From the NCBI GenBank assembly GCA_003142475.1, contig PLMK01000051.1:1-33841 (forward strand): a stretch of 33,841 bases of DNA, written 5' to 3'. Each line of letters opens with the position of its first letter. Position 1 is the stretch's first letter. The notes below the pieces were generated by a model that was given only the letters and a program-made list of their open reading frames with translations, was not told the DNA's origin and searched no databases. Positions 5,076 through 24,069 of the stretch are shown here, one piece after another. This DNA comes from Ignavibacteriota bacterium (GTDB lineage Bacteria; Bacteroidota; Ignavibacteria; UBA10030). The position numbers and the translations under genes were made by a program.

Positions 5076-5480
5076 ATGAAAACAGTTATTCAGCGTATAT
5101 CTATTCTTCTTATAATGTTCTTAGTGGTAACAGCGTTTGCTTTATCAGGGCAATGTAAAGCAATATTAAAAAATGGAACCCAATGTAAAAAGAAGGCTCA
5201 AATTGGATCTCTATATTGTAGGCAACATACGCGAATGTATGGTAAGGGCTTTACTAAATCAATCGCTCCGGCAAAAATAGAACAAACTTCTCCAGCTAAG
5301 ACAGAACCGACCGCTCCAGCTAAGACAGAGCCGACCGCTCCAGCTAAGACGGAACCAACTTCTCCAGCTAAGACAGAACCAACTTCTCCAGCTAAAACCG
5401 AACCAACCTCTCCTGCTAAGACAGAGCCAACATCTCCTGCTCAAACAGAACCAACCGTTCCTGCTAAAACAGGAAAATGA
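5076..5480 (+). CDS. Secreted Cys-motif protein with nine 8-residue PAKTEP repeats
   Basis: A 134-residue exported protein: signal peptide 1-24, a short Cys/His motif (C27, C37, C48, H51 in CKAILKNGTQCKKKA and YCRQH) resembling the small DUF5763-type motif often found in Bacteroidota, and then residues 63-134 built only of an 8-residue unit, (T)(S/A)PAKTEP. The repeat is encoded by 24-bp tandem units, so unit number can vary by replication slippage. The tail is Pro/Lys/Glu-rich, probably extended, and may act as a spacer or cell-wall/surface-interacting segment. The ribosome-binding site is strong (GAAGGGGG before the ATG). Function unknown; the C-terminus ends in the last repeat without a separate domain. 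Confidence 0.82.
   Translation: MKTVIQRISILLIMFLVVTAFALSGQCKAILKNGTQCKKKAQIGSLYCRQHTRMYGKGFTKSIAPAKIEQTSPAKTEPTAPAKTEPTAPAKTEPTSPAKTEPTSPAKTEPTSPAKTEPTSPAQTEPTVPAKTGK
5262..5477 (+). repeat. 24-bp coding tandem repeat, nine units
   Basis: Nine consecutive 24-bp units of the form ACTTCTCCAGCTAAGACAGA plus ACCA. The first unit (IAPAKIEQ) and last (TVPAKTGK) are the most divergent; inner units differ mainly at synonymous positions or at the Ser/Ala residue. Confidence 0.9.
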
Positions 5481-5496
5481 AAAGGGATCGAAATGA

Positions 5497-6579: not shown

Positions 6580-6702
6580 GAGGTAATCCTTTCCAAAAAC
6601 TCATTTGTCTACAAGAGCGTATTCTACTATTGAAAATGTATATCTTTCTCATTGAATATACAAGGTTAAAACGTATGTATATATATGACATAGTATGTTT
6701 CT

Positions 6703-6797
6703 CTTGATTCTTGGCTGATAACTCTCTGCCATTTTTGCGAGAAGCGTGTTGGGGAGACATTGCTATCCATCCGCTGTCGTCAGATTTCAAATTAGAA
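6703..6797. repeat. Dispersed repeat, copy D
   Basis: CTTGATTCTTGGCTGATAAC, core GCGAGAAGCGTGTTGGGGAG and 3' block GTCAGATTTCAAATTAGAAA, in the same order as copies A and F. Confidence 0.75.
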
Positions 6798-6805
6798 ATA
6801 CAAGT

Positions 6806-6858
6806 CGTCATTGCGAGGCTTGTCCCGAACGAAGTGAGGGAACTTATAAAGCAATCCG
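6806..6858. repeat. One arm of a GTCATTGCGAGG-type interspersed repeat
   Basis: CGTCATTGCGAGGCTTGTCC, CGAACGAAGTGAGGG and AAAGCAATCC in order. Elements starting GTCATTGCGAGG...GAAGTGAGG...AGCAATC are common imperfect palindromes in environmental genomes; only one arm is visible here. Confidence 0.5.
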
Positions 6859-6941
6859 CAAAGATTGAATCACCTTTGGAAATTCCAAGTGTGCAGATTG
6901 TCCCGCAAAGCGGGATGATGCGAGGAAGAAGGAATACAACA

Positions 6942-7490
6942 ATGAATGATAAAACAATTATCCCAAGCGAAGTGATCGAAAAACGAATATTTCTTATTCG
7001 CGGGCAAAAAGTGATGCTTGATCGCCATCTCGCAGAGCTTTATGGCGTGCCTACCATGCGTTTGAATGAGGCCGTTAAAAGAAATACCAAAAGATTCCCG
7101 CCAGATTTTATGTTCCAACTTTCAGTGGATGAAAACGATACTTTGATATCGCAATTTGCGATATCAAAAGGACGAGGCGGACACCGAAAATTGCCTTTTG
7201 TATTCACCGAGCAGGGGATTGCTATGCTTTCTTCGGTTCTCAAAAGCGACAGAGCAGTTCTTGTGAATTTTGAGATTATGAGGGCATTTGTAAAATTGCG
7301 GCAATTGCTTTCTACTCACAAAGACCTTGCTGCTAAGCTTGAAGAGCTGGAAAAGAAATACGACGCCCAATTCAAAGTTGTCTTTGACGCTACTCGACAA
7401 ATCATATATACTCCCGAAAAGCCAAAGCGGGAAATCGGCTTCCGCGTGAAGGAACCGGCAGTAAAGTATGGAGTGAAAAGGCAAAAATAA
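6942..7490 (+). CDS. ORF6N-domain protein, paralogue 1
   Basis: A 182-residue protein of the ORF6N family, a DNA-binding-type domain related to KilA-N/Bro proteins of phages and mobile elements. The domain covers about residues 8-100: EKRIFLIRGQKVMLDRHLAE, LYGVPTMRLNEAVKRN, RFPPDFMFQLS, then LPFVFTEQGIAMLSSVL. A coiled-coil stretch (about 115-145) and the family's C-terminal PKREIGFRVKE follow. I start at the ATG at 6942 (purine-rich GAGGAAGAAGGA upstream); the open frame reaches back to 6711 but only through repeat sequence. ORF6N proteins are usually small accessory regulators; the target is unknown. The last eight residues YGVKRQK and the entire 3' flank are shared with paralogue 2. Confidence 0.88.
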   Translation: MNDKTIIPSEVIEKRIFLIRGQKVMLDRHLAELYGVPTMRLNEAVKRNTKRFPPDFMFQLSVDENDTLISQFAISKGRGGHRKLPFVFTEQGIAMLSSVLKSDRAVLVNFEIMRAFVKLRQLLSTHKDLAAKLEELEKKYDAQFKVVFDATRQIIYTPEKPKREIGFRVKEPAVKYGVKRQK

Positions 7491-7684
7491 CGGAGCTATA
7501 TTCCCCCGCATAACGGCAAATTGCCTTGGTAGAGACGTTCAATTGAACGTCTCTACAGAGCGTATGGTTTACCCGCCGTCTTGTTTGGAGGGCGATACGC
7601 CCCTACGGGTGTACCTCTTGATTCTTGGCTGATAACTCGCTACCATTTTTGCGAGAAGCGTGTTGGGGAAACATCGCTTACCAG
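7482..7684. repeat. ORF6N 3'-flank repeat, copy 1 (169 bp exact), including dispersed repeat copy E
   Basis: Bases 7482-7650 are identical to 8394-8562; the match continues to about 7684 with only three scattered differences. The repeat starts inside the last two codons of the ORF6N gene and includes a perfect 28-bp palindrome (7529-7556), the GGCGATACGCC hairpin and copy E of the dispersed repeat (7617-7684). Confidence 0.92.
7529..7556. repeat. Perfect 28-bp palindrome
   Basis: GTAGAGACGTTCAA followed at once by its reverse complement. An identical copy lies at 8441-8468 and related ones at 1707-1729 and 21224-21249. Similar GTAGAGACGT palindromes are common interspersed elements in environmental bacteria. 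Confidence 0.85.
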
Positions 7685-7686
7685 CC

Positions 7687-7761
7687 GATTTTCTTTTTGA
7701 GCTTACACCGCAGGAATATGCAGCTTTAAGGTACCAATTGGGCACCTTAAAGAGCGCTTGA
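7687..7761 (+). pseudogene. Internal fragment of a third ORF6N gene
   Basis: Directly after repeat copy E, 24 codons read DFLFELTPQEYAALRYQLGT then LKSA and a stop. This corresponds to the DFMFQLS.DE segment of the ORF6N domain in paralogue 1, and to the RFP.DF.FQLT.EE...LR.Q family pattern. No start codon, N-terminus or C-terminus remains in frame, so it is a decayed remnant wedged between the two intact paralogues. Confidence 0.65.
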
Positions 7762-7829
7762 AATACAGTGATGGAGATATCATGAAATGTGATATCCTCG
7801 CGTTCTTAAAATAAAGTAATGAGTATGTT

Positions 7830-8402
7830 ATGACAAAAACGGTTTATAAATATTCTGAATCGATTGAACAACATATTTTTTTCATTCGGGGGATGCGAGT
7901 AATTCTTGATAGCGACCTCAGTGCTATTTATGGAGTAAAAACGAAAGTGTTGAATCAGACGGTTAAGAGGAACAAATATAGATTTCCGTCTGATTTTGCA
8001 TTTCAATTGAAGCTGGAAGAAATTGCAGCCATAGACAATCAGCGTGGTATGCGGTCACAAATTGTGACCGCATCAAAACGCAACATTCGATTCCTCCCGT
8101 TTGTGTTTACCGAACACGGCGCAATGATGGCTTCCAACGTATTAAAAAGTTCTCGTGCTCTTTCGATGAGCATTTATGTGATTAGGGCATTTATTCGTTT
8201 GCGCGAAACACTTGCGCTCCATAAAGATTTGGCGCAGAAATTATCGGAATTAGAACAAAAGGTTCAGTTGCACGATTCAGAACTTCAAGCAATTGTCCAT
8301 GCATTGCGTCAATTAATGGAGCCGTCGGATAAGCCAAAGCGAGAGATCGGTTTCCGTGTAAAAGAAACATCGGCAAAATATGGAGTGAAGAGACAAAAAT
8401 AA
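7830..8402 (+). CDS. ORF6N-domain protein, paralogue 2
   Basis: A 190-residue protein with the same layout as the ORF6N gene at 6942: EQHIFFIRGMRVILDSDLSA, IYGVKTKVLNQTVKRN, RFPSDFAFQLKLEE, LPFVFTEHGAMMASNVL, a helical stretch (about 120-160) and KPKREIGFRVKE near the end. Protein similarity to paralogue 1 is clear but moderate, mostly within these motifs, whereas the downstream DNA is practically identical. The ribosome-binding site is weak, and several ATG codons lie close together near 7819-7830. The role is probably DNA-binding or regulatory, as for other ORF6N proteins of mobile elements; this is inference. Confidence 0.87.
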   Translation: MTKTVYKYSESIEQHIFFIRGMRVILDSDLSAIYGVKTKVLNQTVKRNKYRFPSDFAFQLKLEEIAAIDNQRGMRSQIVTASKRNIRFLPFVFTEHGAMMASNVLKSSRALSMSIYVIRAFIRLRETLALHKDLAQKLSELEQKVQLHDSELQAIVHALRQLMEPSDKPKREIGFRVKETSAKYGVKRQK

Positions 8403-8652
8403 CGGAGCTATATTCCCCCGCATAACGGCAAATTGCCTTGGTAGAGACGTTCAATTGAACGTCTCTACAGAGCGTATGGTTTACCCGCCGTCTTGTTTGG
8501 AGGGCGATACGCCCCTACGGGTGTACCTCTTGATTCTTGGCTGATAACTCGCTACCATTTTTACGAGAAGCGTGTTGGGGAGACATTGCTTACCAACCAC
8601 TATCGTCAGATTTCAAATCAGATTCTAAACGATAATTTCAACGCGATTCCAC
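8394..8652. repeat. ORF6N 3'-flank repeat, copy 2, including dispersed repeat copy F
   Basis: Second copy of the flank at 7482, offset by exactly 912 bp. Copy F of the dispersed repeat (from 8529) is complete here, including the 3' block GTCAGATTTCAAATCAGATTC and TTTCAACGCGATTCC, a trailing piece also seen (as TTTCAGCGCGATCC) after copy B at 3107. Confidence 0.9.
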
Positions 8653-8848
8653 GTTCCAGGTTATTGTACAAAGTGTGTATTAGTGTAATTATTAAATTTT
8701 TTGACGGTGGGATGGATGTGAGGAAGAAGGATATAACTATAGCTGTATTTGAAACATTAGATTAAGAGCTTGGGTCAGTGGCAATCCTCTTTGAAACCTC
8801 ATTGAAAATGTGTAAGTTTCAACAGTCTTTAACGGGAGACAATACGAA
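8403..8848. other. Spacer between ORF6N paralogue 2 and the four-gene operon
   Basis: Contains the second flank repeat to about 8652, a 30-35 bp stretch (8709-8745, GGGATGGATGTGAGGAAGAA) that resembles the leader just upstream of the first ORF6N gene (about 6912-6935), and an inverted repeat TTGAAAC/GTTTCAA (8791-8797 and 8816-8822) in the likely promoter/leader of the operon starting at 8849. A 90-codon frame here (from 8493) is repeat-derived and not a gene. Confidence 0.5.
8791..8822. promoter_or_regulatory. Inverted repeat upstream of the GIY-YIG operon
   Basis: TTGAAAC (8791-8797) and GTTTCAA (8816-8822) form a 7-bp dyad 26 bp before the start codon, a position that suits an operator or a leader hairpin. 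No regulator is known. Confidence 0.35.
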
Positions 8849-9715
8849 TTGAAGCCAAAACTTGTACGACTTTTCCTAGCAGAAGAAATTCCAGATGGGT
8901 TACGAACAATCGAATTGTCAAACACAACGGTAATTGGCACAATCTTTCCTCGCAGTTCAATAGATACTTTTGCAAAACGAGAAGCCGCAAGTAAACCCGG
9001 AGTTTATTTATTGATTGGAATTGACCAAGATGATCCTAATTCAAAAAGGGTTTATGTAGGTGAGGGTGATCCCGTCCTCCCTCGTTTGAGGAATCATGTC
9101 GTAAGTAAAGACTTCTGGACACAAGCGATTGTTTTCACAAGTAAGGACGACTATTTAACAAAAACGCAGATTCAATTTTTAGAAGCATCAGTAATTGAAA
9201 AACTTAAAAGTGCATCGCGCGCATTAATTGATAATGGAACTTCACCGACATTGCCTAATATATCTGAAGCAGAGAGATCTGAAGTAGAACATTTTTTAGA
9301 AGTGATGTCTCTCTTGCTCGCTTCCATCGGAATTGATATACTTGAACCTCGTAGTGCGACGGCTCCAGTTATAACAACAGAAGGGAATGTTTATTCATTC
9401 TCAGTTAAAGATGCAATAGCAAAAATGGTTATTTCCGCACAAGGTTATGTGATATTGAAAGGTTCGACATCTGTACGTGAAGAAAGACCGTCTGCTGCTT
9501 CTTTTATTTTAAAGATGCGACAATCATTGATTAGTGCAGGAATTCTTTTTATAAGAGATACAGATTTATATGAATTCAATGTGAATACTCCATTTGATAG
9601 TCCAAGTACTGCTGCTTCGATGATAGCAGGCGGCAATATTAATGGTAGAATAAAATGGAAATTACCTGATGGTAGAACTCTTAAGGATGTTGAAGAGCAG
9701 GCTGCAGTAGAATGA
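8849..9715 (+). CDS. GIY-YIG nuclease-family protein with DUF4357-like C-terminus
   Basis: A 288-residue protein, first gene of the operon. The TTG at 8849 is the start: GGGAG lies 10 bp upstream and no better codon is near. The GIY-YIG fold core is GVYLLIGI (51-58) ... RVYVGEGD (67-74), with the usual Arg in LPRLRNHV (R79/R81) and the catalytic-type Glu in QFLEASVIEKL (E112), so the nuclease may be active. The C-terminal part (about 253-284, STAASMIAGGNINGRIKW, DGRTLKDVEE) matches the DUF4357 domain that often ends such proteins. The stop overlaps the start of the methyltransferase gene by 4 bp, so the two are translationally coupled. Likely a DNA-cutting or DNA-processing partner in a modification/defence system (inference). 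Confidence 0.82.
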   Translation: MKPKLVRLFLAEEIPDGLRTIELSNTTVIGTIFPRSSIDTFAKREAASKPGVYLLIGIDQDDPNSKRVYVGEGDPVLPRLRNHVVSKDFWTQAIVFTSKDDYLTKTQIQFLEASVIEKLKSASRALIDNGTSPTLPNISEAERSEVEHFLEVMSLLLASIGIDILEPRSATAPVITTEGNVYSFSVKDAIAKMVISAQGYVILKGSTSVREERPSAASFILKMRQSLISAGILFIRDTDLYEFNVNTPFDSPSTAASMIAGGNINGRIKWKLPDGRTLKDVEEQAAVE

Positions 9716-10548
9716 AAGCTGAAATAAAAAAAATAGAAGCACAACCATTTCTTCGCTGGGCAGGCAGCAAAAAGAAAATTCTCCCTCAGCTCTCTGAATA
9801 TCATGGGAAAGACTATAAACGTTATGTCGAGCCTTTTGTGGGATCGGCATCGCTTTTTTTTAAATTGAATCCCAAAAGAGCCATTCTCGGAGATATTAAC
9901 AAAGACTTAATCTCCACTTATAGAGAAATTAAATACAGGTTACCTGGAGTTTCTCGCGAACTTGGAAAGCTCAAAAAAGGTAAGCGACGATACTATCAAC
10001 TCCGAAAACTAGATGAAGCAATACTTACACCAGCGCAGAGAGCGGCTCGATTTATTTATCTCAACAGATTTTGTTTTAATGGACTGTATCGGACGAATAT
10101 GAAGGGTCTTTTTAATGTTCCGTACGGTGGCAAGAAAGCAGGCAATATCCCATCTAATGATGCCCTTTCATCCTGTGCAAAAGCGCTGAAGAAAGTAAGA
10201 CTAGTTTCCGGAGATTTTGCGAAGACAATTGAATGTGTTAAATCCGGTGATTTTGTTTATATGGATCCCCCGTTTTTTGTAGAAGACAGAAGAGTGTTTA
10301 AGGAATATAGTGGATCTATATTTCAGAAGAGTGATTTAACCCGCTTAAAAAAGTGGATGGATAAATTAAACAAGAGAAAAATTGATTTTGTTGTTAGTTA
10401 TGCAAAATGTAAAGAAGCAGAGATACTTGGAGAAGGTTATATAAAAAAAACGGTTAAAGTTAGGCGTAGCATAGCAGGATTTAGTGATAAACGAAGGCAT
10501 TCAAAAGAATATATAATTACTAATATCCGCAGATCGTTACGTCAATAA
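9712..10548 (+). CDS. DNA adenine N6-methyltransferase, D12 class (Dam-like)
   Basis: A 278-residue S-adenosylmethionine-dependent DNA methyltransferase of the Dam/D12 class. Motifs in order: FLRWAGSKKK (13-22), the SAM-binding PFVGSASLFF (41-50), ILGDINKDLI (58-67), the target-recognition region with RFIYLNRFCFNGLYRTN, and the catalytic DPPF (185-188, usually DPPY). The length is normal for the class. The start overlaps the upstream GIY-YIG gene by 4 bp (ATGA). A methyltransferase fused translationally to a nuclease-fold gene suggests a modification/cleavage pair; the recognition site cannot be read from the sequence. DPPF instead of DPPY is a tolerated variant in this group. Confidence 0.92.
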   Translation: MKAEIKKIEAQPFLRWAGSKKKILPQLSEYHGKDYKRYVEPFVGSASLFFKLNPKRAILGDINKDLISTYREIKYRLPGVSRELGKLKKGKRRYYQLRKLDEAILTPAQRAARFIYLNRFCFNGLYRTNMKGLFNVPYGGKKAGNIPSNDALSSCAKALKKVRLVSGDFAKTIECVKSGDFVYMDPPFFVEDRRVFKEYSGSIFQKSDLTRLKKWMDKLNKRKIDFVVSYAKCKEAEILGEGYIKKTVKVRRSIAGFSDKRRHSKEYIITNIRRSLRQ

Positions 10549-10614
10549 AAAAAAGAAATTCTCAAAATGAAAAGAAAAATTAATCCTCATTCTTAACTTT
10601 AAAAGACAATACTA

Positions 10615-11589
10615 ATGAAACGAAAAAAAATACATCGACTTGCACCTGCAACGATTGGAGTTAAGAAAATCCCGACTATAAGTCTGGTGCCTAATCCACA
10701 TAATCCTCGAATGCTATTTGATCGTGAACCTTTGGATACTCTCAAGGCATCAATAGATAAGGTTGGTATACTCGTACCTCTTACAGTATACTGGAGTAAA
10801 GAACAGGGAAAGTATATCATTTTGGATGGCCAACGGCGTTGGCTTTGTGCTCAAGAATTGGATTTGAAAGAAGTTCCAGTAAATCAGGTCGCTGAACCTA
10901 CTTTAGTACAAAACATTGTCACGATGTTTCAAATTCATAGACTTCGTGAAGATTGGGAACTAATGCCAACTGCCCTCAAATTGGAGGTATTAATGAGGGA
11001 GTTAAGCGAGAAGAATGACAAGAAGCTATCAGAATTAACAAGACTTGACAAAGCAGTAGTTGTAAGGTGCAAAAAACTTCTTTCTTACCCTAAGAAGTAC
11101 CAGGATCTTATGTTACACCCTGATCCGACCAAACGTGTAAAAGCAGATTTCTTCATTGAGCTTTATGCTGTTAGAAACGATCGAATGGTTAATAAGATGC
11201 CATGGTTTGCGAAGGAAAAATTCACGGAGAGAATGCTAGAAAAGTATCAAACTAAATCCGGTGGTTTTAAAGCGGTCACTGATTTCCGTCTAATGAAGCA
11301 ACATATCACAAATGCAGTGAACGTTAAAAAAACTTCTGCAATTTCAAGGCGTCTCGAGGAATTCACGAATGATGACAATCTTTCAATGGATCATCTAATG
11401 ATAAAGTCTGCTGATGTATCATCAAGTGCTCGTAAACTACTAATAAATGTTCATAGACTGGAAGCAGATATTAATTCAATCGATGTTGAAGAATTCTATG
11501 GTGAAGAAGATTTATGGAAAAGTTTGGAGAAATTAATTTCCTTAATAAGAACGAAGCTTCAAGCCGCCGGTAGGAGGCTTGATAAATGA
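10615..11589 (+). CDS. ParB/Srx-fold protein with helix-turn-helix
   Basis: A 324-residue protein. Residues 17-92 are a ParB N-terminal domain: ISLVPNPHNPRML, LDTLKASIDKVGILVPLTVY, YIILDGQRRWLCAQEL (GQRR at 72-75 in place of the usual GERR) and EVPV. A Box-II-like stretch (MFQIHRLREDWELMPTA, 104-120) and a central helical region with a probable HTH (KLSELTRLDKAVVVRCKKLL) follow, as in ParB/Spo0J/KorB. The last 150 residues match nothing I know. There is no parA next to it, so chromosome partition is unlikely. It is third in the operon (66 bp after the methyltransferase) and overlaps the phosphoribosyltransferase-like gene by 4 bp. ParB-fold proteins in this context can be CTP switches or nucleases; which applies is unknown. 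Confidence 0.82.
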   Translation: MKRKKIHRLAPATIGVKKIPTISLVPNPHNPRMLFDREPLDTLKASIDKVGILVPLTVYWSKEQGKYIILDGQRRWLCAQELDLKEVPVNQVAEPTLVQNIVTMFQIHRLREDWELMPTALKLEVLMRELSEKNDKKLSELTRLDKAVVVRCKKLLSYPKKYQDLMLHPDPTKRVKADFFIELYAVRNDRMVNKMPWFAKEKFTERMLEKYQTKSGGFKAVTDFRLMKQHITNAVNVKKTSAISRRLEEFTNDDNLSMDHLMIKSADVSSSARKLLINVHRLEADINSIDVEEFYGEEDLWKSLEKLISLIRTKLQAAGRRLDK

Positions 11590-12413
11590 AGAGACCGTTT
11601 CCAAGAAATTCTGCCGTTGATGAAAACAGAATAGCTGAGTGGTTGATCCTTTTCTCACAATATACACATTCAGTTACAACTGGTATAATAGAAAGGTGGC
11701 TCCAGCAATTCACACCAAGAGATAGAGACATTGCGGCAAGAGTATTAGATTGCGTGCATTTTATTACAAATGAGCAAATTCTTAGTTCATTTAAATCAAC
11801 CCTAGAAAGTCTTCCTGGTTGGGACAAAGATGAAAAGCGAAGAAATGGAAAATGGAGATTTGTCCCATTCACTGCAAGTTCGGGAGAAAGTGGTGATTCT
11901 ATGATTCATAGATTCCGACGTGCAAACAATCTTAACTTTAAAAAGTACAACAGCCTTTTTATTTATAAGAGTGATCTTTTGCTAGAAAATTTGAATAAAG
12001 ATGATACAGTAGTATTTATCGATGATTTTTCTGGAACAGGAGAACAAGCAGAAACTACTTGGAATGAAAACCTTCAAGAATTATTGCCAAACGAACCAAA
12101 CATTTATCTTGTTTTGATTGCTACGAGTGTAATTGGAAGAACTAGAATAGAGAATTTTACAAAATTGAGAGTAAGCAGTAGTGTTGAGCTAACTGATGAA
12201 GATAATATGTTTTCATCTCATTGCCGACACTTCTCATCACACGAAAAAAATATTATCATTCAATATTGCCGTAAAGCGAATAATTTAGAACCAAAGGGCA
12301 GAGGAAATTGTGGTTTTGTAATAGTATTTGCGCATGATTGTCCAAACAATTCAATACCTATTCTACATGCTTACCATAATCGATGGAGGGGCATGTTTAG
12401 GAGAAATTATTAA
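11586..12413 (+). CDS. Phosphoribosyltransferase-like protein of conflict-system type
   Basis: A 275-residue protein, last gene of the operon, coupled to the ParB-like gene by a 4-bp overlap. The key motif is TVVFIDDFSGTGEQ (141-154), a PRPP-binding loop of the type I phosphoribosyltransferase fold (two acidic residues followed by a G-T-G turn). Upstream, SSGESGDSMIHRFRRANNL (98-116) matches the segment that precedes this loop in the PRTase-CE group of phosphoribosyltransferase-like proteins, which occur in predicted prokaryotic conflict systems. The N-terminal 80 residues are helical. No transmembrane segment or signal peptide is seen. It could make or salvage a nucleotide signal or modify a base together with the operon partners; that is speculation. 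Confidence 0.75.
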   Translation: MKRPFPRNSAVDENRIAEWLILFSQYTHSVTTGIIERWLQQFTPRDRDIAARVLDCVHFITNEQILSSFKSTLESLPGWDKDEKRRNGKWRFVPFTASSGESGDSMIHRFRRANNLNFKKYNSLFIYKSDLLLENLNKDDTVVFIDDFSGTGEQAETTWNENLQELLPNEPNIYLVLIATSVIGRTRIENFTKLRVSSSVELTDEDNMFSSHCRHFSSHEKNIIIQYCRKANNLEPKGRGNCGFVIVFAHDCPNNSIPILHAYHNRWRGMFRRNY

Positions 12414-12883
12414 TAAACATCTTATTATTTACTTCATACTTTGAGGGAGCTTCATTCTCGAAGTGGTAAATACTGATTCTGAGATCCGCCTTCTCGTTCA
12501 TTAAAATAAAAGCTCAGAAAGAAATTATAACCGTCCCGAATGGAGAAACAGGAAGGATCACTAAAAATCTATTTTTCCTTCGATGCGAGTCCTAATCCCA
12601 GTAGCATTAATGCAAATTGCTTTTCAGAGTGTGCAAGAAAATCCTTTTCTAAAAATATCGGACCCCGTTATTCTTCAGAGTCCGGTGTTATGGATTCCCA
12701 CTCACAGGAAAAGAATAAAGAGAATACAAAGATCATGAAAGAATATTCTTACGGCGGGGCGCGCGCGTTGATTGCATTGCACGGACAGCACATGCGCTCG
12801 TTATCCTCGTTCCCAAACTCAGTTTGGAAAAGGACGGATAGTGGCAATAAATTAAAACATATAACCAAAAAGGTAGCTTTTCG
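12414..12883. other. Non-coding stretch with duplicated fragments
   Basis: Follows the four-gene operon. It holds a hairpin copy (12657-12685) related to 14126-14161, a truncated copy of the start of the gene at 13427 (12728-12802), and a CCAAAC/GTTTGG hairpin (12813-12827) just where that copy ends. A 116-codon open frame from 12540 runs through these pieces and does not look like a gene. Confidence 0.6.
12728..12802 (+). pseudogene. Duplicated 5' fragment of the DinB-like gene at 13427
   Basis: 75 bp almost identical to 13420-13494, covering the end of the leader, the ATG (12735) and the first 22 codons (MKEYSYGGARALIALHGQHM). Only four or so bases differ. The match ends abruptly at CGCTCGTT, where a GTTCCCAAAC palindrome follows, so the rest of the gene is missing. 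Confidence 0.88.
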
Positions 12884-13330: not shown

Positions 13331-13426
13331 AAAAGCTGTTCAAACTGCCATTCATGAATAATCCGGCTGCGGGAAAGACATCTGTATGGATACCACTTAT
13401 GGAAAGAAACAGAGGAGAGAAAGATC

Positions 13427-13903
13427 ATGAAAGAATATTCTTACGGCGGGGCGCGCGCGTTGATTGCTTTGCACGAGCAGCACATGCGCTCGTTTCTGGA
13501 AACTTGGCGAAAGGCAAAAAAGACGGGCGTTACACTGCCTCAAACGACTGATACTGCATACAAATCCATGGAGGCTCTTTTATGGCACCCGCTCAAATCG
13601 TCGCGCGGATATATCATCTGGATATGTCAGAAACTTGAACTGCCCGATCCGAACATTGATTCTATGCCGGTAATAGAACAAATAGAATCCTCGGCAGATG
13701 CATTTCTCGAACATTTGCTGGAACGATGGGATTTGCCTTTGCGTGAAATTCCTGAAGAGCGTTTCTTCGATCGTACGTATACCTCCAACTGGGATGCGGA
13801 GTACTGCATTGAAGCGATGCTCGAACATGCCGTTATGCATCCGATCCGGCATGAATTTCAACTCCTCAACCTGATGAAATCACTCGAGGGGAAGAAGAAA
13901 TGA
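13427..13903 (+). CDS. DinB-superfamily-like protein, function unknown
   Basis: A 158-residue soluble helical protein. Its layout suggests the DinB/YfiT four-helix fold, in which three histidines bind a metal: here H54 (LLWHPLKSSRGYIIW), H138 and H142 (EHAVMHPIRHEFQLLNLM). The last motif resembles the HxxxHxxQ helix that closes DinB proteins. The similarity is by pattern only and moderate. An AGGAGAG ribosome-binding site supports the ATG at 13427. DinB-like proteins include thiol-dependent S-transferases and metalloenzymes of unknown substrate. The 5' end of this gene is duplicated at 12728-12802, upstream of the response regulator. Confidence 0.6.
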   Translation: MKEYSYGGARALIALHEQHMRSFLETWRKAKKTGVTLPQTTDTAYKSMEALLWHPLKSSRGYIIWICQKLELPDPNIDSMPVIEQIESSADAFLEHLLERWDLPLREIPEERFFDRTYTSNWDAEYCIEAMLEHAVMHPIRHEFQLLNLMKSLEGKKK

Positions 13904-21411: not shown

Positions 21412-24069
21412 GTGAACAAGTCTGATTCCAAATATATAATTGTCTTAATAACAATTACCCTGACCTTCCTCTTTGTTAATTACACTGCGCTGGCCTCCAT
21501 AGTATCATATACAACTGATGCCGATGGAATAACATGCACATTGGATAAGGGCTTCATGAAAGTTAAAATTTGTAAAGAGGATGTCGTTGAAGTCAAATAT
21601 ACATCGTTGACGGCGCTCTCTCAAAAAACATCCTTGGTAGTAACAAACTTGTGGACATCTCAGCCTCAATTTCAAGTTACTGAAAACTCAACCGAGATTA
21701 TTATTTCCACCGGCAAATTAAAAATCAAATTGACCAAGTTAACCAATTCAATCCAGTATATAGAATTAAACGGTGCTCTTATTCTTGCCGAGGATGATTC
21801 TGTAGGAAAGAAGATGACGGCCGCGACTATTGCCGGCATCAATACATACAATTGCGAGACACTCTTTCGATCGCCGGTGGATGAAGCGTTGTTTGGATTG
21901 GGCTGTCATCCGACAGATGCAGGAGCCATGAATTACAAAGGCCGGAATCAGGATATGGCTATCCAGTACATGACTGGCGCAATTCCTGTTTTATTATCCA
22001 ACAAAGGGTATGGACTTATGTGGGACAATTACTCTGCATCGAATTTTTACGGCGCCGAAGCAGGTAATATGAAATTCAAATATGTATCGGAGAGTGGCAC
22101 AATGGTAGATTATTATTTTTTCTATGGTCCCGACTTCGATCATATCATTGCACTTTACCGCGAAGCTACAGGTCAAGCACCGATGTTCCCTAAATGGAGT
22201 TTTGGATTATTCCAATCGCAGGACAGGTATCAGAGTCAGACTGAAGTGTTATCCGTTAAAGACAATTACCGAAACAATCACATTCCTATTGATTGCATTG
22301 TTCAGGATTGGTATTACTGGTATCCCGCGGGCATTGGATCGCACATAATGGACCCTACGAATTATCCCAATCCCAAAGCGATGGTAGACACGTTACATAA
22401 AGCAAATATTCATGCCATGATTTCTATTTGGCCGGTTTTCGCAAGCGGGACGAATAATTTTAATGAATTAAAGAACGCAGGAGGTTTGACAGATATTACC
22501 TGGAAGGATGTCATGACGCAAAATTATGATACATACTATGACGCCCACAGTTCCAGTGCACGTGATATATATTGGAGACAGGCGAATAACAGTCTTATTA
22601 CTCCATATGGATGGGATGCATGGTGGGTAGATCAATGTGAACCGGACAACGGCGGACTTTTAGATGCTCGCAGAAAAAGTACTTTTGCTCTTGGTAAAGG
22701 GATCGATTATTTCAATACCTATTCATTAACGCATACTATTGGTCTTTATAAAAACTGGAGGACTGATATCTCAGGGAAGCGAGCATTTTTCCTCGTTCGC
22801 CAAGCATTTGCTGGGCAGCAAAGAAACGCTACAACCCTCTGGTCGTCCGATATTACGTGTACCTTCGGTTCATATAAAATTCAAGTGCCGCAAGGTATTA
22901 ATGCTTGTGTATCCGGCATACCGTACTGGACATCAGATATTGGAGGATATCATTTAAACTGGGTATCTCCCGATTGGAAAACCGCTGCAAACAGAGAACT
23001 ATTTACTCGCTGGTTCCAATTCGGCACCTTCTGTCCGATATTCAGAATTCATGGAAAAGGTGAGCGTGCTTTGTTTTCAAATAATTGGGATGCGAATACG
23101 AAATCAATTTTATTGAATTACGATAACTTGCGGTACCGACTTTTACCTTATATCTATTCTCTCGCGTGGAAAGTAACGAACGAAGCGTACACAATTATGC
23201 GAGCGCTCGCATTTGATTTTAGAACAGACGCAACGATTAATGATATTCAAGATCAATATATGTTCGGACCGGCGTTTCTTGTCAATCCGGTGACCGCACA
23301 AGCAATATCACGAAAGGTGTATCTTCCGAACTCATCCACGTGGTATAATTTCTGGACAGGTGAGTCTTTCGCTGGCGGCCAGACTATTAATGCGCAAGCA
23401 CCCATCGAAACCATACCGTTGTATGTAAAGGCCGGTTCTATTATTCCGTTGGGACCATTTATTCAGTATGCCACTGAAAAACCCGTGGATACGCTCGAGT
23501 TGCGAATTTATCGGGGTGCGAATGGACAATTTGCATTATATGAAGACGAAAACGATAACTACAATTATGAACAAGGAAAATATTCTGTTATCCCGATTAC
23601 GTATTATGATTCTTCAAAGCAACTGATCATTGGGACCAGACAGGGAACGTTTACCGGTATGTCACAGAATAAGATTTTCAATATCGTTTGGGTTGATACG
23701 GGAAAAGGTATTGGTATCAATAGTCCGGTTAAATTCGATACAGTCATTCATTACCATGGTTCTCAGACGGAGATTACCTCGGTTTCTCTTGGTTCTTCAC
23801 TTCCGAATCAAATGGAATTGCAGCAGAATTATCCCAATCCATTCAATGCATCAACCAAGATTTCTTTTTCTATCCAATTGAGGTGTCACGTATCACTGAA
23901 GATTTATGATCTCCTTGGAAGAGAAGTTGCTATGCTAGTTGATCAACGGAAAGAGCCTGGTTCCTATTCAGTGGAATGGAACGCCAAGAACTTTTCCAGC
24001 GGTGTATATTTGTATCGACTTCAAGCGGGTGACTTTATGAAAACGAAAACACTTATTATGTTGAAGTGA
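21412..24069 (+). CDS. Secreted GH31 alpha-glycosidase with type IX secretion domain
   Basis: An 885-residue exported glycoside hydrolase family 31 enzyme (alpha-glucosidase or alpha-xylosidase type). GTG at 21412 is the start (AAGGAG before it; signal peptide about 7-29). Residues 35-255 are the N-terminal beta domain with FGLGCHPTDAGAM, then the catalytic barrel: FGLFQSQDRYQ (264-274), IVQDWYYW (296-303), the nucleophile D407 in WDAWWVDQCEPDNGG, acid/base D480 in TLWSSDI, IPYWTSDIGGY and FRIHGKGERALF. A C-terminal beta domain follows. Residues 797-885 form a T9SS sorting domain (YPNPFN, KIYDLLGREV, SGVYLYRLQAG), so the enzyme is probably cell-surface bound or released. It presumably digests alpha-linked glucans or xyloglucan side chains. 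Confidence 0.93.
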   Translation: MNKSDSKYIIVLITITLTFLFVNYTALASIVSYTTDADGITCTLDKGFMKVKICKEDVVEVKYTSLTALSQKTSLVVTNLWTSQPQFQVTENSTEIIISTGKLKIKLTKLTNSIQYIELNGALILAEDDSVGKKMTAATIAGINTYNCETLFRSPVDEALFGLGCHPTDAGAMNYKGRNQDMAIQYMTGAIPVLLSNKGYGLMWDNYSASNFYGAEAGNMKFKYVSESGTMVDYYFFYGPDFDHIIALYREATGQAPMFPKWSFGLFQSQDRYQSQTEVLSVKDNYRNNHIPIDCIVQDWYYWYPAGIGSHIMDPTNYPNPKAMVDTLHKANIHAMISIWPVFASGTNNFNELKNAGGLTDITWKDVMTQNYDTYYDAHSSSARDIYWRQANNSLITPYGWDAWWVDQCEPDNGGLLDARRKSTFALGKGIDYFNTYSLTHTIGLYKNWRTDISGKRAFFLVRQAFAGQQRNATTLWSSDITCTFGSYKIQVPQGINACVSGIPYWTSDIGGYHLNWVSPDWKTAANRELFTRWFQFGTFCPIFRIHGKGERALFSNNWDANTKSILLNYDNLRYRLLPYIYSLAWKVTNEAYTIMRALAFDFRTDATINDIQDQYMFGPAFLVNPVTAQAISRKVYLPNSSTWYNFWTGESFAGGQTINAQAPIETIPLYVKAGSIIPLGPFIQYATEKPVDTLELRIYRGANGQFALYEDENDNYNYEQGKYSVIPITYYDSSKQLIIGTRQGTFTGMSQNKIFNIVWVDTGKGIGINSPVKFDTVIHYHGSQTEITSVSLGSSLPNQMELQQNYPNPFNASTKISFSIQLRCHVSLKIYDLLGREVAMLVDQRKEPGSYSVEWNAKNFSSGVYLYRLQAGDFMKTKTLIMLK

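What the first reader, a model, noticed from the sequence alone, without database searches (positions are those of the whole stretch)
8849..12413. Four-gene operon: GIY-YIG nuclease, Dam-type methyltransferase, ParB-like and phosphoribosyltransferase-like proteins
Sequence shows four same-strand genes with two 4-bp ATGA overlaps and one 66-bp gap. Motifs are intact: GIY-YIG core with Glu112, DPPF methyltransferase site, ParB GQRR box, PRPP-type loop VVFIDDFSGTGEQ. From family knowledge, each type turns up in restriction-modification or conflict systems, but I know no named system with this set. Inference: a methylation-guarded defence island in which the methyltransferase marks self DNA, the nuclease cuts, and the ParB/PRTase pair senses or signals with nucleotides. 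It sits next to repeats and ORF6N genes, as accessory islands do.
Basis: partly seen in the sequence, partly recalled or inferred. Interest (0 to 1): 0.8.

Follow-up and report, generated by a model that had tools for sequence, protein, structure and literature searches.

The report
Methylation-guarded suicide-defence gene trio
Three linked bacterial genes (a DNA-marking enzyme, a ParB-like nucleotide switch and a phosphoribosyltransferase of the kind proposed as the killing part of known anti-phage systems) recur together in a distant bacterium and look like a new mix of known defence parts, while the nuclease gene beside them is probably an optional extra.

Summary
The four genes are real, with the stated coordinates, overlaps and motifs, but they are not shown to be one four-gene system. 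A scan of bacterial genomes for close relatives of the PRTase found one (L012, gammaproteobacterial MAG). It has Dam methyltransferase, ParB-like protein and PRTase in the same order (43, 63, 47% identity), 4-bp overlaps, and no GIY-YIG gene. The GIY-YIG protein is PADLOC candidate PDC-S14; 0 of 8 relatives viewed has a homologue of genes 2-4 nearby, 3 of 8 lie in type I R-M loci. The conserved unit is 9712-12413. PRTase-CE is the putative effector of type III-A retrons and DprA-PRTase. The ParB-like protein is not the host's partition ParB: it keeps GxRR, has MFxIH instead of ENxQR, forms its own clade, and two further members sit in DpnII- and EcoO109I-type R-M loci, each directly upstream of a different putative effector (HEPN-like and DUF4062-like, both sub-threshold). 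Best reading: methylase marks self, ParB-like switch senses unmarked DNA, PRTase shuts the cell down. New variant of known kinds, nearest in logic to PD-lambda-5 and to published HEPN + ParB + DNA-methylase operons. The mechanism is inferred; structure models were too poor to use.

The parts
9712..10548 (+). Gene B: Dam-family (DpnM-like) adenine-N6 DNA methyltransferase; core part, proposed self-marking
   Evidence: PF02086 153 bits, TIGR00571 222.6 bits; nearest solved structure DpnII methylase 2dpm 158.9 bits against 100.8 for the next (DNA adenine methylase 4gbe); 43% identical to L012 copy
10615..11589 (+). Gene C: orphan ParB-like protein; core part, proposed DNA-reading nucleotide switch
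   Evidence: PF02195, TIGR00180; GQRR kept, MFQIH in place of ENxQR, own clade 100/99; 63% identical to L012 copy; host has a separate ParA-ParB pair on contig C43
11586..12413 (+). Gene D: PRTase-CE protein; core part, proposed toxic effector
   Evidence: PF24390 143.3 bits; PADLOC PRTase_III-A E 1.8e-34; Asp146, Asp147 and Gly152 invariant in 7 homologues; 47% identical to L012 copy
8849..9715 (+). Gene A: GIY-YIG-like/DUF4357 protein (PADLOC PDC-S14); probably an accessory nuclease, not core
   Evidence: PDC-S14 E 5.6e-87, DUF4357; no homologue in L012, L032 or L082; 4-bp overlap with gene B

Best explanation
Genes B, C and D are one transferable defence module built like a restriction-modification system whose restriction enzyme is replaced by a switch and a toxic effector. 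B methylates host DNA (predicted at GATC). C, a ParB-like nucleotide-binding protein, recognises DNA lacking the mark, perhaps by loading on it as a clamp as ParB does at parS. On infection C frees or activates D, a phosphoribosyltransferase-like enzyme that halts the cell, most likely by altering nucleotide or PRPP/NAD pools. Shown: gene identities, the conserved three-gene order in two genomes, separation of C from partition ParB, and C-family members beside a DNA methyltransferase in 4 of 4 loci. Inferred: defence function, GATC specificity, sensing by C, toxicity of D. Gene A is an accessory nuclease.
For: B-C-D recur with 4-bp overlaps in L012, at 45.4% GC in a 59.6% GC flank. Two further C-family members (G301, 121 bits; G134, 111 bits) lie in R-M loci: DpnII endonuclease plus two methyltransferases in L032, EcoO109I endonuclease plus C5 methyltransferase in L082, and in both the next gene is a non-endonuclease candidate effector (weak HEPN_Apea E 0.045 with RNAVSH; weak DUF4062 E 0.0024). 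PRTase-CE is the putative effector in type III-A retrons (PMC12548924, passages) and DprA-PRTase, which blocks T7 and lambda (PMC9122126, passage). Of 8 PRTase-CE loci viewed, 4 have a DNA methyltransferase beside them (window, L012, L009, L011) and 6 an NTP-binding-type partner: ParB-like 2, ORC-CDC6-like 3, fused AAA ATPase 1; the other 2 have a reverse transcriptase. B is closest to GATC methylase DpnM in the PDB.
Against: Only two B-C-D loci are known here. C-family is rare: 4 genomes with hits over 100 bits in overlapping samples of 398, 395, 274, 257 and 78 genomes. No activity was tested. C lacks the ENxQR box tied to CTP hydrolysis. The effectors in L032 and L082 are below curated cut-offs and the two do not resemble each other. 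AlphaFold models were poor (pLDDT 48 and 51). No PRTase of known structure matched better than E 0.09.
Confidence: 0.5

Rival explanations
1. Four-gene restriction-modification plus suicide module: A is the cutting enzyme for the site protected by B, and C-D is the attached backup that kills the cell if restriction fails.
For: A overlaps B by 4 bp; two other C-family loci hold a true restriction endonuclease next to methylase, ParB-like and effector genes; 3 of 8 relatives of A lie in type I R-M loci.
Against: L012 keeps B-C-D without any A homologue; 0 of 8 viewed relatives of A has B, C or D homologues; A is of a family PADLOC lists as a single-gene candidate (PDC-S14), not a known type II enzyme.
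Confidence: 0.25
2. B-C-D is an addiction or maintenance module of a mobile element rather than anti-phage: loss of B's methylation triggers C-D killing.
For: Low GC in the window and in L012; R-M systems are known to act as addiction modules (recalled); the same parts would serve.
Against: No mobile-element gene was identified next to the trio in either locus; PRTase-CE relatives in validated systems block phages.
Confidence: 0.13
3. C is an NTP-regulated DNA nicking enzyme and itself the restriction activity; D modifies nucleotides in a repair or salvage role.
For: Some ParB-like proteins fused or linked to adenine methylases show nicking or NTPase activity (PMC5512222, passages).
Against: C is closest to Noc/ParB clamps with an HTH region, not to the nuclease-type ParB domains; PRTase-CE recurs in defence settings.
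Confidence: 0.07

Closest known systems
PD-lambda-5 (E. coli prophage system, PMC9519451)
   Same: D12-class methyltransferase next to a protein whose N-terminus I read by eye as ParB/Srx-like (EGNRR box) and whose C-terminus looks HEPN-like; [quoted passage not shown] L105 and L106 are PADLOC-confirmed loci.
   Different: There switch and effector are one protein; here they are two genes and the effector is PRTase-CE. C does not match PD-Lambda-5_A (no hit for window C; hhalign probability 0.9%, E 0.064). No Pfam family supports my reading of PD-lambda-5_A.
HEPN (MAE_28990 family) + ParB + DNA methylase operons (PMC3710099)
   Same: DNA methylase, ParB-family protein and a toxin-type domain in one operon (table entry seen in passages).
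   Different: Toxin is a HEPN RNase there and PRTase-CE here; whether that ParB belongs to the C family was not tested.
Type III-A retron PRTase effector
   Same: Gene D matches PADLOC PRTase_III-A (E 1.8e-34); relatives L036 and L037 sit beside reverse transcriptases.
   Different: No reverse transcriptase among 16 window ORFs scanned and no Rfam hit in the window.
DprA-PRTase (PMC9122126)
   Same: PRTase effector paired with a DNA-sensing partner, protects against T7 and lambda (passage).
   Different: Partner here is ParB-like plus a methyltransferase; no DprA among the ORFs scanned.
ORC-CDC6-like + PRTase-CE loci, two of three with a methyltransferase (L009 Klebsiella plasmid, L011 Moraxella, L010 Rhizobium)
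   Same: NTPase plus PRTase-CE, with a DNA methyltransferase in L009 and L011.
   Different: ATPase is ORC-CDC6-like, not ParB; methyltransferase families differ; PRTases about 25% identical.

Membership tests
PRTase-CE (PF24390) | Full-length match above gathering score | tested here: met
   143.3 bits, cut-off 27, model 1-253
PRTase-CE (PF24390) | PRPP-loop acidic pair and glycine | tested here: met
   D146, D147, G152 invariant in 7 sequences
PRTase-CE (PF24390) | Phosphoribosyltransferase activity or toxicity | not testable with these tools
   needs biochemistry
Retron type III-A | Adjacent reverse transcriptase and retron ncRNA | tested here: not met
   16 window ORFs scanned, no RVT match; no Rfam match
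PD-lambda-5 | PD-Lambda-5_A homologue | tested here: not met
   no PD-Lambda-5_A hit for window C or L012 and L082 C; L032 C weak E 8.3e-4; hhalign prob 0.9%
PD-lambda-5 | D12 methyltransferase (PD-Lambda-5_B) | tested here: inconclusive
   B matches PD-Lambda-5_B at E 2.4e-10 but many other type II methylase models far better
Type II restriction-modification | DNA methyltransferase | tested here: met
Type II restriction-modification | Cognate restriction endonuclease | tested here: inconclusive
   A is GIY-YIG-like/PDC-S14 but absent from L012
ParABS partition ParB | ParA next door, ENxQR box | tested here: not met
   no ParA ORF beside C; ENxQR absent in 4 of 4 C-family, present in 6 of 7 comparison ParB/Noc; host ParA-ParB is elsewhere
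DprA-PRTase | DprA partner | tested here: not met
   no such match in 16 ORFs
NCBIfam NF053875 (DS32_1_antiphage) | Score over curated cut-off 250 | tested here: not met
   26.4 bits; L012 13 bits
PADLOC PDC-S14 (gene A only) | Full-length profile match | tested here: met
   289.5 bits over residues 1-284

The most novel reading that the evidence does not exclude
The C family is a general methylation-reading ParB-type switch: a clamp that loads on DNA lacking the resident methyl mark and licenses whatever toxic effector is encoded just downstream (PRTase-CE, HEPN-like or DUF4062-like so far), either alone (window, L012) or as a suicide backup to a real restriction enzyme (DpnII and EcoO109I loci). 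That would make R-M-like self marking drive abortive infection through a nucleotide switch, without cutting the invader.
Probability: 0.33. Interest if true: 0.82.

Novelty: new variant of a known kind. Interest (0 to 1): 0.6.

Why it matters
If right, the effector of type III-A retrons and DprA-PRTase is also wired to DNA-methylation-based self recognition, through a ParB-type switch. It gives an unusually clean handle on two open questions: what PRTase-CE does to a cell, and what orphan ParB-CTPase-fold proteins on mobile DNA sense. Because the methylase is predicted to act at GATC, both can be asked in dam-plus and dam-minus E. coli laboratory strains.

Tried and rejected
Rejected: one four-gene system as a conserved unit. 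Rejected: C as the host's partition protein. Rejected as a relative: the hit in G152 (L006), which reads by eye as a sensor kinase and was dropped before A2; the hits in G051 and G236 were not followed. Rejected: membership of C in PD-Lambda-5_A. Not used: AlphaFold models of C and D, so no fold search was run.

Led nowhere: viral-contig scans with D, with the C and D pair alignments, with L032 C and with L012 D (no relatives except one partial generic ParB match, L013); D in phage records (none); L032 C in phages and plasmids (ParB-domain matches covering under 80%); the L082 and L032 effectors in plasmids (none); the best plasmid hits of C (L039-L041) are partition ParBs beside an AAA family ATPase; the two effectors do not align with each other. 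A genus-mate comparison for an empty site gave only a 23-residue match. My note tying DS-32 to PMC13092281 is not borne out by its main text, where the name does not occur.

The genome-contig scan needs an exact 8-residue match, so it sees close relatives only. Genome samples overlap. The tree rows (11) were chosen by me and the program warns of long branches. The plasmid gene tables are incomplete, so re-read all frames of the fetched loci; one of the 8 (L093) has an annotated ParB/RepB/Spo0J gene about 3 kb from the GIY-YIG gene on the other strand, cut by the locus edge, that gave no C match at E<=0.01.
Full report
What is there. The window is nearly all of contig C32 of an unnamed 3.58-Mb, 81-contig genome. 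Four + strand genes, here A-D, lie at 8849-9715, 9712-10548, 10615-11589 and 11586-12413 with two ATGA overlaps and a 66-nt gap. A matches DUF4357 and PADLOC PDC-S14. B is a Dam-family adenine methyltransferase. C has a ParB N-terminal domain. D is a full-length PRTase-CE protein and matches the PADLOC type III-A retron PRTase models.

Which genes belong together. A scan of 84,980 species genomes for close relatives of D returned one locus, L012, titled as a Gammaproteobacteria MAG. There a Dam methyltransferase (8170-9018), a ParB-like gene (9015-10004) and a PRTase gene (10001-10825) follow each other with 4-bp overlaps; identities to the window are 43, 63 and 47%. The genes on either side are a TSCPD-domain gene and a thioredoxin gene. 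A six-frame search found no A homologue in L012. The L012 trio has 45.4% GC against 59.6% around it; B-D in the window has 36.1% against 41.7% outside A-D. This points to horizontal transfer of a B-C-D unit.

Gene A. tblastn of A against plasmids gave 130 records. Of 8 contexts viewed, 3 are type I R-M loci (L093, L094, L096); the others sit by helicase, ATPase, SOS-polymerase or unknown genes. None of the 8 carries a homologue of B, C or D at E<=0.01. A is therefore best read as an accessory that joins several kinds of locus, though its overlap with B leaves a role here open.

Gene C is not the partition ParB. The host has a ParA-ParB pair on contig C43 with ENIQR and an LGRGL-type N-terminus; C has neither ParA beside it nor those motifs. 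Profiles of C found two further members over 100 bits: G301 (121 bits; 17 of 398 genomes had any match at E<=1e-12) and G134 (111 bits; 76 of 395 at E<=1e-15). The next best in those two searches scored 68 and 76 bits. Further samples of 274, 257 and 78 genomes added no member (best other score 96 bits, partial). The weaker hits inspected (G792, G399, G000:C43) carry ENxQR, but most were not inspected. The four C-family proteins form one side of a branch with 100/99 support in an 11-row tree, with MFxIH in 4 of 4 and ENxQR in 6 of 7 of the others; the program warns of long branches. [quoted passage not shown]

Neighbours of the C family. In L032 (G301) the order is D12 methyltransferase, DpnII endonuclease, C, a 281-aa protein, N6_N4 methyltransferase. 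The 281-aa protein has only a weak HEPN_Apea match (E 0.045) and an RNAVSH motif. In L082 (G134) a C5 methyltransferase and an EcoO109I endonuclease lie beside C, which overlaps by 4 bp a 288-aa protein with weak DUF4062 similarity (E 0.0024). So 4 of 4 C-family loci hold a DNA methyltransferase, 2 of 4 a recognised restriction enzyme, and in 4 of 4 the gene directly after C encodes something other than a recognised restriction enzyme. Both R-M loci are also GC-poor (35.6 against 42.8%; 30.1 against 37.3%).

Neighbours of PRTase-CE. In 296 genomes of the phylum D matched 7, itself included. On plasmids 143 records matched at E<=1e-5, 128 of them Klebsiella. Contexts viewed: Klebsiella L009 (N6 methyltransferase, PRTase, ORC-CDC6-like ATPase), Moraxella L011 (methyltransferase, PRTase, ORC-CDC6-like), Rhizobium L010 (PRTase, ORC-CDC6-like in two ORFs), L036 and L037 (reverse transcriptase), L038 (PRTase-CE fused behind an AAA ATPase). 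With the window and L012 that is 8 loci, 4 with a methyltransferase beside the PRTase. PRTase-CE thus looks like an exchangeable effector. Its action is unknown in the sources seen: PMC9122126 says the mode of action of retron PRTases is unknown and proposes DprA senses phage DNA and activates the PRTase (passage); PMC12548924 calls it the typical type III effector (passages).

Mechanism. B is nearest to DpnM (2dpm, 158.9 bits) among solved structures, and the FNG(L/I)YR.N..G.FNVP segment is shared by B, L012 and L032, the last in a DpnII locus; GATC specificity is inferred from that. GATC occurs 137 times in the window against 171 +- 12.7 in shuffles, a mild deficit of unclear meaning. The three steps (mark, sense, kill) follow from the families and from the recurrent methylase + switch + effector order; none was shown by experiment.

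Known systems. PD-lambda-5 is described as a compacted prophage RM+Abi system (PMC9519451, passage). Its loci, found by family search in 4 of 185 genomes (two PADLOC-confirmed), pair a D12 methyltransferase with a protein that I read by eye as ParB-like plus HEPN-like; Pfam supports neither and hhalign with the C family is not significant. PMC3710099 lists a HEPN family in operon with a ParB nuclease and DNA methylase genes (passage). The logic therefore has precedents; the Dam + ParB-like + PRTase-CE set did not appear in the paper searches made (open-licence PMC papers only, no preprints).

Verdict. Observation confirmed; four-gene reading not upheld; a three-gene B-C-D defence module is the best account, a new variant of known kinds.

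Noticed in passing
window 6696-8622: Two ORF6N genes (6711-7490, 7830-8402) lie in a near-tandem arrangement with repeat copies 912-914 nt apart (101-nt family at 6696, 7610, 8522; 292-nt pair at 7395 and 8307, 90% identical) and a 28-nt palindromic arm pair at 7529 and 8441.
   Followed up: partly
window 12719-12802 and 13411-13494: An 84-nt stretch is duplicated (93%), the second copy covering the start of the gene at 13427; a 23-residue piece of that gene's start also matches G078 contig C4 at 83%.
   Followed up: partly
window 5233-5496: Tandem 24-nt repeat coding a PAKTEPTS-like array at the end of the ORF 5076-5480.
   Followed up: no
window 21412-24069: GH31-type glycoside hydrolase with a Por secretion-system sorting tail, which suggests a host of the Bacteroidota-like group.
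   Followed up: no
L009 4626-8820: A methyltransferase + PRTase-CE + ORC-CDC6-like set on a Klebsiella IncFII plasmid; 128 of 143 plasmid records matching D are Klebsiella. The PRTase is annotated only as hypothetical protein.
   Followed up: partly
L038 5500-8682: PRTase-CE fused to the C-terminus of a 1060-aa protein with an AAA ATPase region.
   Followed up: no
L010 6627-8637: ORC-CDC6-like gene in two ORFs beside a Rhizobium PRTase-CE gene, a possible frameshift or natural split.
   Followed up: no
L012 and L082 C proteins: Weak matches to the first 120-134 positions of a 436-position PADLOC type II methylase model, as expected if some methylases carry a fused ParB-like domain.
   Followed up: no
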